Below are positions 60,744 to 64,000 of a DNA stretch of 64,000 nucleotides, one piece after another (the stretch's first letter is position 1; each line of letters opens with the position of its first letter). Source of the DNA: Tausonia pullulans (Eukaryota; Basidiomycota; Tremellomycetes; Cystofilobasidiales; Mrakiaceae); assembly GCA_951802195.1 (NCBI GenBank), contig OX637628.1, positions 1,261,693 through 1,325,692 on the forward strand, read 5' to 3'. The notes beneath the pieces are model-generated. The model saw nothing but the letters and a program-made list of their open reading frames with translations, did not search any database and had not been told where the DNA came from. The translations under genes and the position numbers were made by a program.

Positions 60744-61769
60744 ATGGATAATCCCAACGCAGACCCTCGAATCGTTACCGAACTTGCTCTTGCAAGACAG
60801 CAAGTTGACCGTCTAAGGACCGCCCTTAAAAATCTCCGACAACAACAACAACAACAGACAGAGGTTATCACCTCGCATCCCGAAGTCAAAGACTACCACG
60901 GACCTACTCCCCACGCCTTCAGTGGCAAGAGATCAGAATCGGAGACCTTCGTCCTCAAGCTTGATAACATTTTTCGCCTGCAACCCGTGTCCCTCGGAAC
61001 GGACGACATGAGGATTCAATACGCGATCTCACTCCTTACGGATGACGCTTTCAACTGGGTCCGCCCTTACCTCCTCGTCGATGATTCCGACCGTCCGGAC
61101 TGGTTCGACACCTGGCCACGTTTCAGGGCCCGCCTCCTCAAAGACTTCGGAGAAATCGACCGCGTCGAAACCGCTCGGCGCGCTCTCAAGGATCTTCGTC
61201 AAACGACCACAGTTTCCATCTACGCCTTCGAGTACAGACGCCACAAACTCCTCCTTGACTTTGGCGATCAGTATCATCGTTTTAACTTCTTCGACGGTCT
61301 CAAGCTTGATGTCAAGGAACGTCTCGTCCGTGCTCAAAACTATGCCAACCTCGACGATCTTATCGACGCCGCCATCGAATGGGACAACGCCCTCACCGAC
61401 TTTCGCCACGCTCATGCACCCCGCAACGTCAGCCGTCCAACCGTCGCCACAGTCGTCCCTCCCGCTCGTCGTACCTTCTTCCCGTTCGTACCCGTGACCA
61501 ACACCTCAGCCTCATCATCCGGCCCCGTCCCCATGGAGGTCGACGCCACCTCTCGGCCTCGTGGCCCCCTCTCCGACGCGGAAAGGGAGCGCCGCCGACG
61601 CGACGGCCTCTGCCTATACTGCGCCAGCAAGGACCACCGAGTTATCAACTGTCCCATCGCTCCTCGTCGATTCTTCAATATCTCGGCTATCTCGGCCACC
61701 AATACCGCCAATGGCGTCCCTCGTTCAGCCACAATCAAGGAGATTATCAACGATCAAGACTCAGCGTGA
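60744..61769 (+). CDS. gag: Retrotransposon Gag (nucleocapsid) protein
   Basis: 341 residues. An N-terminal coiled helix with poly-Gln (LKNLRQQQQQQ) precedes the capsid-like retrotrans_gag domain (FSGKRSESETFVLKLDNIFRL; DDAFNWVRPYL; FRARLLKDFGEIDRVETARRAL). A Pro/Arg-rich linker follows, and then a CCHC zinc knuckle CLYCASKDHRVINC near the C-terminus. The frame ends at TGA 61767-61769 and continues open in the same frame as pol. Start at 60744 is the first ATG after the LTR with a good context (AACATGG). Confidence 0.92.
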   Translation: MDNPNADPRIVTELALARQQVDRLRTALKNLRQQQQQQTEVITSHPEVKDYHGPTPHAFSGKRSESETFVLKLDNIFRLQPVSLGTDDMRIQYAISLLTDDAFNWVRPYLLVDDSDRPDWFDTWPRFRARLLKDFGEIDRVETARRALKDLRQTTTVSIYAFEYRRHKLLLDFGDQYHRFNFFDGLKLDVKERLVRAQNYANLDDLIDAAIEWDNALTDFRHAHAPRNVSRPTVATVVPPARRTFFPFVPVTNTSASSSGPVPMEVDATSRPRGPLSDAERERRRRDGLCLYCASKDHRVINCPIAPRRFFNISAISATNTANGVPRSATIKEIINDQDSA

Positions 61770-61773
61770 CTAG
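61767..61773 (+). promoter_or_regulatory. Gag-pol UGA in readthrough context UGA-CUAG
   Basis: The gag stop is TGA followed directly by CTAG. UGA-CUA(G) is the best-characterised efficient stop-readthrough context in eukaryotic genes. Since pol begins in the same frame without its own clear start, readthrough would make Gag-Pol in a low ratio to Gag. Confidence 0.6.
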
Positions 61774-64000
61774 CCGACCCGTCCGACCCGACGGGTTCGC
61801 CTTCGTCTGCCAACGGCCCCTCGCTTTTCGACAACGTTTCTGGACCCCCTCTTTACTCCTTTTTTATTCAAAACACCAAAGAATCACTTCGCGGTCCTCC
61901 CATGCTCCCCCCGGTCGACCGTTTTTCGCTACCCTCTAACCCATTCCATTGCCTTTCCACCGACGACATCCCCACGGCTTCCTTTCATGAGGAAGATCAC
62001 GTCGTCCTGCCCCTCTCCATCGCCTTCGGATCCACCTCCTTCGACACATACGCACTGATCGACAGCGGTGCCACATCCAACTTCATCGACTCGTCCCTCG
62101 TCGACAAGCATTCGGTTCCACTCGTGGTAAAGAACGCCCCTCGCGCCCTCGAGGTCGTCGACGGTCGCCCGATCGCATCGGGAGCCGTCACGCATCACAC
62201 CTCTCCCCTGGCCCTCACCGTACCTAGGCATCGACACACCGAATCCCTCTCTTTCGACGTCACCTCCCTTGGCCACTATCCGATCATCCTCGGTATTCCC
62301 TGGCTCAAACGACACAATCCCTCGATCGACTGGCCAGCGCATTACCTCGTTTTCGATTCGCAGTACTGCCGGAGCTCCTGCCTCTCACGAGAAACTTCCA
62401 CCCTAGCCAAACCCCTCAGTCAAGTCCCACCATCGTCTTTCAACGAGGCTTCATCGCCCTCGTCCCCGCCCTTGTCCTTGTCCTCGCCCAAGCCCTCGTC
62501 CTCGCCCAAGCCCTCGCCCAAGCCCTCGTCCTCGCCCAAGCCCTCGTTCTCGCCCAAGCCCTCGTCCTCGCCCAAGTCCTCGTCCTCGCTCAGGTTCAAG
62601 TTCAAGTCCTCGTCCTCGCCCAAGCCCTCGCCCAAGCCCTCGTCCTCGCCCAAGCCCTCGTTCTCGCCCAAGCCCTCGTCCTCGCCCAAGTCCTCGTCCT
62701 CGCTCAGGTTCAAGTTCAAGTCCTCGTCCTCGCCAGTCAGCCACCGATCGCTCCTCCCTGCCGTCATCTCCGCCACCCGGTCTTCGCCTTACTTCTCTGT
62801 TATCCCGCCTACGGACCCGCTTGACCCCCCGGACCGTGAGCCTTCACCCCCGGAGATTGATGTACCCGCCATCGTCCCACCGGAGTATCACGCCTACCTC
62901 AAGGTTTTCGAGAAGTCCTCAGCCTCGGAACTTCCCCCTCATCGGCCATACGACCATGCCATCACTCTTAAGGACAACACGCAGCCACCCTTCGGTCCGA
63001 TCTACGGCCTCTCATCAGTCGAGCTCGGCGCTCTTCGCGAATTCATCGACGAGAACCTCGCCAAAGGTTTCATCGTCCCCTCGAAGTCACCTGCCGCTGC
63101 TCCCATCCTTTTCGTCAAGAAGAAGGACAAATCTCTTCGCCTCTGCGTCGACTACCGCCGTCTCAACGCTATCACCATCAAGAATCGGTACCCGCTTCCA
63201 CTCATCTCGGAATCCCTTGACCGGCTGGCCACTGCCAAGTTCTTCACCAAACTCGACCTCCGAGGCGCCTACAACCTCGTTCGGATCGCCCCGGGTGATG
63301 AATGGAAGACTGCCTTCCGCTGTCGCTACGGGCTGTTCGAGTACAAAGTTATGCCCTTTGGGCTGACGAACGCACCAGCCACATTCCAGCACTTTATGAA
63401 CGACACCCTCCGCGACCTCCTCGACATCTCCGTCATCGTCTATCTAGACGATATCCTCATATTTTCCCCTACCCTTGACACACATCGCCAACACGTTGCC
63501 ACTGTCCTCGAGCGCCTCCTGACAGCGCGCCTCTGGGTCAAGCCGGAGAAGTGCGCCTTCCACCAGGACGAGGTCGATTTCCTCGGCTACATCGTCGGCG
63601 CTCAAGGCATCAAGATGGATCCCTCCAAGATCTCAGCCGTCACAGACTGGCCGGTACCCACCTCGGTCAGACACATCCAGTCCTTCCTCGGATTTGCCAA
63701 CTTCTACCGCCGTTTCGTCCACCGGTTCTCAAAAGTCGTCGCTCCCATTACGTCCCTCCTCAAGAAAGGTGTCCCCTTCCACTTCGGACCGGATCAACTC
63801 GCCGCTTTCAAGACCCTCAAGTCCAAGTTCACCTCGTCTGCCGTCCTCACCGTCTTCGATCCCTCGCTTCCCCTCGTCCTCGAGACGGACTCATCCGATT
63901 TCGCCGTTGCCGGCGTCCTCTCGCAACGCGCCGTTGCCCTTCGCTCGCCACTCCGCCCGATCGCCTTCTACTCGCGCAAGCTCAACCCGGCCGAACTCAA
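61770..64000 (+). CDS. pol: Retrotransposon Pol (protease, RT, RNase H), partial
   Basis: Open to the window's end in the gag frame. An aspartic protease has LIDSGATSNFID (DSGA catalytic loop at 62061) and IILGIPWLKRHNP. A Ser/Pro/Lys linker of about 85 residues with an internal 114-bp duplication follows. Reverse transcriptase starts near FGPIYGLSSVELGALREF and has KKKDKSLRLCVDYRRLN, KLDLRGAYNLVRI, FGLTNAPATFQ, the catalytic YLDD at 63441-63452, and FLGYIVGAQGIKMDP. The RNase H start LETDSSDFAVAGVLSQ comes near the end, followed by RPIAFYSRKL. RNase H completion, integrase and any chromodomain are outside the window. Confidence 0.92.
62494..62734 (+). repeat. 114-bp tandem duplication in the pol linker
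   Basis: Two essentially identical 114-bp units (62493-62606 and 62607-62720, one mismatch seen at the first base) plus 14 bases of a third. Each unit is itself built from shorter TCGCCCAAGCCC motifs and encodes 38 residues of Ser-Pro-Lys repeats ending LRFKFK. The length is a multiple of three, so the frame is kept. On the other strand this creates a misleading Gly/Glu-rich frame. Confidence 0.9.

What the first reader, a model, noticed from the sequence alone, without database searches (positions are those of the whole stretch)
61761..61780. Gag and Pol in one frame, separated only by UGA in the leaky context UGA-CUAG
The retrotransposon's gag ends in TGA-CTAG and the pol frame runs on in the same phase to the window's end with no further stop. 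Fungal Ty3/gypsy elements usually use a -1 frameshift or, in Tf1, a single fused frame. The bases after the stop match the strongest known eukaryotic readthrough signal. This suggests that Gag:Pol ratio is set by programmed stop readthrough, by a short linear motif and not a pseudoknot.
Basis: partly seen in the sequence, partly recalled or inferred. Interest (0 to 1): 0.8.

Follow-up and report, generated by a model that had tools for sequence, protein, structure and literature searches.

The report
Leaky stop codon between retrotransposon genes
A fungal jumping gene keeps a leaky-looking stop signal between its shell protein and its enzymes in nearly every copy, most likely so that ribosomes make a few fused enzymes for many shell proteins; the same trick is already described in fission-yeast elements.

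Summary
Gag (60744-61766) ends in TGA-CTAGCC and Pol continues in the same frame; the window ends at its contig's end, but another copy shows a complete Pol of 1423 codons. Four lineages (gag dS up to 0.41) keep the stop between frames under purifying selection (dN/dS 0.11-0.40), so it is not an inactivating mutation. No plausible intron was found. One clade has almost no predicted structure after the stop, so the signal shared by all is linear, UGA-CUA. Programmed UGA readthrough is the best explanation; translation was not measured. The element is a Tf1-like chromovirus. The kind is known: fission-yeast Tj1, Tcry1 and Tosmo1-3 have an in-frame TGA-CTA/CTG, and Tj1 needs its stop to transpose (PMC10085805, PMC4600332). 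Added here: one more member, with junction variants that do or do not have a hairpin, and a distant element with UGA-CUU at the same place.

The parts
60315..60674 (+). 5' LTR
   Evidence: matches at 100% over 360 bp the LTR found on both sides of the C19 copy, whose two LTRs are identical
60527..60535 (+). candidate self-primer ACTCTGACT in the LTR
   Evidence: complementary to 60677-60685; both halves present in 7 of 7 loci printed, of 9 asked for; a Tf1-like feature, inferred
60677..60685 (+). candidate primer-binding site pairing with 60527-60535
60744..61766 (+). Gag, 341 codons
   Evidence: Retrotrans_gag PF03732, E 9.4e-10; 68 matches in the own genome
61611..61652 (+). zinc knuckle CLYCASKDHRVINC near the end of Gag
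   Evidence: sequence
61767..61769 (+). UGA stop between Gag and Pol
   Evidence: 50 of 51 junction places
61770..61775 (+). 3' context CUAGCC
   Evidence: CUA in 51 of 51 places, the following G in 50 of 51; CUAGCC otherwise unchanged in 24 aligned rows
61776..61797 (+). 8-bp hairpin of clades A and D, 6 nt after the stop (two further outer pairs possible)
   Evidence: weaker in lineage B, absent in clade C; not better than shuffles (z -0.79 for 60 nt)
61770..64000 (+). Pol, same frame as Gag, cut by the end of the contig
   Evidence: complete in the C19 copy, 1423 codons
62046..62333 (+). aspartic protease region (IDSGAT)
   Evidence: RVP_2 E 0.00067, just under Pfam's cut-off; two other protease models also under theirs
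62403..62775 (+). Ser/Pro/Lys-rich minisatellite between protease and RT, units of 12 and 18 nt
63114..63596 (+). reverse transcriptase
   Evidence: RVT_1 E 2.2e-38
63786..63995 (+). RNase H, start only
   Evidence: RT_RNaseH_2 E 6.5e-17

Best explanation
A Tf1-like Ty3/gypsy chromovirus makes Gag from ATG 60744 to the UGA at 61767. At this UGA, in the leaky context UGA-CUA(G), a small share of ribosomes insert an amino acid with a near-cognate tRNA and go on in the same frame, giving a minority Gag-Pol fusion. The signal common to the copies is the short linear motif; a hairpin just downstream in the most numerous clade may raise the level there. Shown by computation: conservation of the stop and its 3' context, purifying selection on both sides, no plausible intron, no predicted structure shared by all clades. 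Inferred: that readthrough happens, its rate, and that it sets the Gag:Pol ratio.
For: Stop kept in 50 of 51 places and CUA in 51 of 51, while the three codons before it and the bases from 61776 on vary between lineages. dN/dS among four lineages 0.16-0.28 in gag, 0.11-0.40 in pol, 0.20-0.37 in the first 200 pol codons. Open Pol frames of 1423, 1374, 1410 and 1361 codons in lineages A, B, C, D. No in-frame stop in the 1243 Pol codons of locus L042, so UGA is not simply read as sense. Two Gag relatives from other samples, 89% and 74% identical, end at the residue where this Gag ends. The same context gives readthrough in Ustilago (PMC4207609) and mammalian cells (PMC4132726), and an in-frame stop is needed by Tj1 (PMC4600332).
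Against: No translation data. 22 of 232 nearby 9-base windows are as conserved as the motif block. The 29 codons after the stop show only weak selection (pN/pS 0.37-0.92), and the last 29 Gag codons 0.28-1.33. A Met 45 codons into Pol is kept in 11 of 13 loci printed, which would suit separate initiation. The host's two triosephosphate isomerase genes, a known place of this motif in Ustilago, do not have it (0 of 2). In the Candida element Tca2, junction sequence with an in-frame UGA was not enough for readthrough in S. cerevisiae (PMC2194720 abstract).
Confidence: 0.85

Rival explanations
1. The UGA is an inactivating mutation spread among dead copies.
For: Many copies are broken elsewhere, by stops or frame changes, and one place has a sense codon, TGC.
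Against: The stop is in all four lineages that keep a long open Pol and dN/dS is well under 1 on both sides. The TGC copy is the diverged, deleted one.
Confidence: 0.03
2. An intron removes the stop from part of the mRNA.
For: 13 in-frame GT..AG pairs of 40-400 nt exist around the stop; one pair (61641..61991) is kept in every row that has letters there, 18 of 18 and 17 of 17, and its length is a multiple of three in 6 of the 8 sizes seen.
Against: None of the 12 GT sites has a usual donor form (GTRNGH); the kept pair would start with GTTATC inside the zinc knuckle and end in CATGAG, and its length is 352 or 359 in some copies. No RNA data.
Confidence: 0.03
3. Pol is made separately, by reinitiation or internal entry at ATG 61902.
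For: This Met is in frame, 44 codons after the stop and before the protease, and is kept in 11 of 13 loci printed; selection on the first 29 codons after the stop is weak.
Against: It is the 11th ATG counted from the Gag start and has a poor context, CCTCCCATGC. It does not explain why UGA-CUA is kept. The Tj1 precedent ties the stop to function (PMC4600332).
Confidence: 0.06
4. Readthrough happens, but needs an RNA structure after the stop.
For: Clades A and D have an 8-bp hairpin 6 nt after the stop; consensus folding of 7 sequences gave 2 of 24 pairs with changes on both sides.
Against: Clade C keeps stop and open Pol, but its next 60 nt fold at only -0.7 to -2.3 kcal/mol, z +1.86 to +2.31. 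Folds of the window itself are no better than shuffles, z -0.80, -0.19, +0.62. Pseudoknots were not tested.
Confidence: 0.08

Closest known systems
Fission-yeast Ty3 elements Tj1, Tcry1, Tosmo1-3 (PMC10085805; PMC4600332)
   Same: In-frame TGA between Gag and Pol followed by CTA or CTG; Pol in the same frame; Tf1/sushi group with self-priming.
   Different: Those share the 8 bp GAA-TGA-CT; here the codon before the stop is GCG, GTG, GCA or ACG and never GAA in 24 aligned rows. Their sequences were not at hand, so kinship was not tested.
UGA-CUA readthrough of cellular enzymes in Ustilago and of UGA-CUAG genes in mammals (PMC4207609; PMC4132726)
   Same: The same short stop context, shown there by reporters.
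   Different: Cellular genes with short extensions; here a retroelement with a Pol of 1423 codons behind the stop, and no reporter test.
Candida albicans Tca2 (PMC2194720, abstract and outline seen)
   Same: Gag and Pol separated by a UGA.
   Different: A possible pseudoknot 3' of the stop, and the junction alone did not direct readthrough in S. cerevisiae. That Tca2 is a Ty1/copia element is recalled.
Contaminant element L094/L099 found here
   Same: Knuckle, UGA-CUU, then Pol in the same frame: 380 codons open before and 1279 after the stop in L099, chromodomain at the end.
   Different: CUU and not CUA; L094 is broken soon after the stop; it lies in another part of the RT tree; host unknown.

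Membership tests
Ty3/gypsy chromovirus (Metaviridae) | domain order protease, RT, RNase H, integrase | tested here: met
   RT, RNase H and H2C2 over cut-off in that order in L042, integrase core 28.1 bits against a cut-off of 32.6; protease models just under cut-off
Ty3/gypsy chromovirus (Metaviridae) | chromodomain at the C-terminus of Pol | tested here: met
   Chromo PF00385 E 7.2e-15 and SH3_Tf2-1 E 9.6e-15 in the C19 copy
Ty3/gypsy chromovirus (Metaviridae) | two LTRs | tested here: met
   360 bp, 100% identical, in the C19 copy
Tf1/sushi group | self-priming: 5' end of the RNA complementary to the primer-binding site | tested here: inconclusive
   9-nt match kept in 7 of 7 loci printed; the RNA start is not known
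Tf1/sushi group | groups with Tf1 or sushi in an RT tree | not tested
   reference sequences were not in the tree
programmed stop readthrough of Gag-Pol | Gag and Pol in one frame, separated by a stop | tested here: met
programmed stop readthrough of Gag-Pol | stop and 3' context kept while both frames evolve under selection | tested here: met
   qualification
programmed stop readthrough of Gag-Pol | fusion protein made at a low ratio | not testable with these tools
   needs a reporter, proteomics or ribosome profiling
Tj1/Tosmo-type junction of fission yeasts | strictly kept 8 bp GAA-TGA-CT | tested here: not met
   TGA-CT is kept, GAA is absent in 24 aligned rows. It works like them; it is not filed as one of them.

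The most novel reading that the evidence does not exclude
In-frame UGA-CU(A/U) readthrough has arisen several times among chromoviruses that otherwise use -1 frameshifting or a single frame, and in this element a linear six- or seven-base motif alone sets the Gag:Pol ratio, with a hairpin present only in some clades, the most numerous one included, as a tuning device.
Probability: 0.4. Interest if true: 0.6.

Novelty: new member of a known kind. Interest (0 to 1): 0.45.

Why it matters
It adds a case of UGA-CUA Gag-Pol readthrough beyond the fission-yeast ones that I found in print, and it offers natural variants in one genome: the same stop with a strong hairpin, a weak one, or none after it. 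That makes it possible to ask directly how much of Gag-Pol recoding needs only a six- or seven-base motif. The comparison set suggests that the strategy changes often among relatives: of 27 loci with a recognisable knuckle (of 40), 14 were scored -1, 8 single frame, 4 same frame with a stop and 1 +1.

Tried and rejected
Host evidence for the same motif: the two triosephosphate isomerase genes end in TGA GAG and TAA AGA (0 of 2 with UGA-CUA); the ends of the GAPDH genes were not resolved because of introns. Viral contigs: two scans found no relative. Rfam reached no threshold in the window. The tree of 49 rows does not settle the closest sister: a group of elements with single frames, support 82/61. 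In the recoding count 13 of 40 loci had no knuckle in reach; L107 is doubtful (protease and RT in different frames) and L101 (TAG) is a fragment. The pairs suggested by consensus folding were not taken as a shared structure, since clade C does not form them. A third close Gag relative (P0003, 87% identical) ends earlier and says nothing about the stop. Literature: seven searches were answered. In their listings I noticed no paper on a UGA-CUA Gag-Pol stop in a Ty3 element other than the fission-yeast ones; only open-licence papers are held, and I opened eight (one abstract with outline, seven by passages, one of these also one section part).

Full report
Observation. The window holds a Gag frame from ATG 60744 to TGA 61767-61769, then CTAGCC, then a Pol frame in the same phase that is open to base 64000. 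Pfam finds Retrotrans_gag in the first, and RT and the start of RNase H in the second. The window ends at the end of contig C9 of a 23.9-Mb genome in 21 contigs, so the rest of Pol was read from other copies. In the C19 copy Pol has 1423 codons and ends in TAG; its two LTRs are identical over 360 bp; its C-terminus carries SH3_Tf2-1 and a chromodomain. The element is a Ty3/gypsy chromovirus with at least one copy inserted recently.

Conservation of the stop. DNA and protein searches of the own genome (only the best candidates are scored, so counts are lower bounds) gave loci that cover 51 distinct places spanning the junction: 49 read TGACTAG, 1 TGACTAA, 1 TGCCTAG. Places were found by alignment of the flanks and not by the stop itself. 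The TGC copy (C11:139411) is 72% identical and lacks 19 bases just before the junction. The 51 places are not independent: they give 23 distinct sequences, and many are pairs of inverted duplicates. In the 24 aligned rows (23 and the window) the codons just before the stop vary, TGA CTA GCC has two single-row changes, and from 61776 on two groups differ at many columns. Against a strong reading, 22 of 232 nine-base windows nearby, the block itself included, are as conserved.

Selection on both sides. Four lineages were compared: A (L002/L042), B (L027/L061), C (L028/L067), D (L022/L064). dN/dS was 0.16-0.28 in gag, 0.11-0.40 in the part of pol held (1176 to 1243 codons) and 0.20-0.37 in the first 200 pol codons; dS reached 0.41 in gag. 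For B the Gag comparison uses 253 codons from an internal Met, because the usual start was not found in L027. Open Pol frames are 1423, 1374, 1410 and 1361 codons in A, B, C and D; 23 of 70 Pol matches lie in frames of 1331 codons or more, of which L062 and L065 lack gag and L069 is broken 73 codons after the stop. The 29 codons after the stop evolve fast (pN/pS 0.37-0.92), as do the last 29 of Gag in one pair (0.28-1.33). Of three close Gag relatives from other samples (89%, 74%, 87% identical), two end at the residue where this Gag ends and the third is shorter; their DNA could not be read.

Rivals. An inactivating mutation would not sit in all four lineages with open Pol. An intron is unlikely: none of 12 GT sites has a usual donor form, and the single in-frame GT..AG pair kept in all rows with letters starts inside the zinc knuckle; its length is a multiple of three in 6 of 8 sizes, so length alone does not exclude it. 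Separate initiation at ATG 61902 is possible: the Met is kept in 11 of 13 loci printed, but it is the 11th ATG in a poor context. A shared structure is not seen: clades A and D have an 8-bp hairpin 6 nt after the stop, B a weaker one, C almost nothing; folds of the window are no better than shuffles. Consensus folding of 7 sequences gave 24 pairs, 2 with changes on both sides, which the folds by clade do not bear out. Pseudoknots were not tested.

Relatives. A profile of Pol found 40 loci in prokaryotic genome records, probably contaminant contigs of eukaryotes. 27 had a recognisable knuckle: 14 were scored Gag to Pol -1, 8 single frame, 4 same frame with a stop, 1 +1. Two of the four stops belong to one element (L094 and L099, 96.8% identical over 601 bp) with TGA CTT directly before Pol; in L099 380 codons are open before and 1279 after the stop. 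In the RT tree it lies away from the window's element, which suggests a separate origin. The window's nearest group in that tree has single frames, with weak support (82/61).

Known work. The G3 paper on S. osmophilus (PMC10085805; passages and section 28 part 1) describes in-frame TGA followed by CTA or CTG in Tosmo1-3, Tcry1 and Tj1 and proposes readthrough; it also says that Tf1/sushi elements outside fission yeasts mostly use -1 frameshifting. The Tj1 paper (PMC4600332, passages) shows that removing the stop abolishes activity. The context itself is known from Ustilago (PMC4207609, passages) and from mammalian genes (PMC4132726, passages). The passages shown of two surveys of fungal LTR elements (PMC2864245, PMC3248453) did not mention readthrough of a Gag stop; the terms asked for included 'stop codon' in both.

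Verdict. It is a new member of a known kind, with a useful natural series of junctions with and without a hairpin.

Noticed in passing
own genome, contigs C3, C4, C5, C6, C7, C8, C12, C15, C16, C19 (coordinates): Diverged copies occur as pairs in inverted orientation some 10-40 kb apart, in internal clusters; these may be palindromic, centromere-like regions.
   Followed up: no
own genome: C1:6280, C3:10489, C10:13529, C11:1639, C9:1323459 (the window): Several of the nearly identical, young copies lie within about 14 kb of a contig end, which suggests subtelomeric insertion or assembly breaks at the element.
   Followed up: no
own genome C15: L062, L065, L066 (RT at 188229, 192763, 197297): Three units spaced 4534 bp apart in which the Pol frame opens in LTR-leader-like sequence and the Gag junction is missing: a tandem array of gag-less units.
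   Followed up: partly
L094 and L099 (filed under bacterial names): A distant chromodomain element with zinc knuckle, UGA-CUU and Pol in one frame, an apparently separate case of the same strategy.
   Followed up: partly
window 60527-60535 and 60677-60685: A 9-nt self-complementarity between LTR and primer-binding site, as in self-priming Tf1-like elements.
   Followed up: partly
window 62403-62775: Ser/Pro/Lys-rich minisatellite inside Pol, between protease and RT; Pol length differs between young copies (1401-1459 codons), perhaps through its copy number.
   Followed up: no
window 52492-52828, 53441-53597, 56713-57049: Diverged LTR-like pieces in the same window, two of them an inverted pair 98% complementary.
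   Followed up: no
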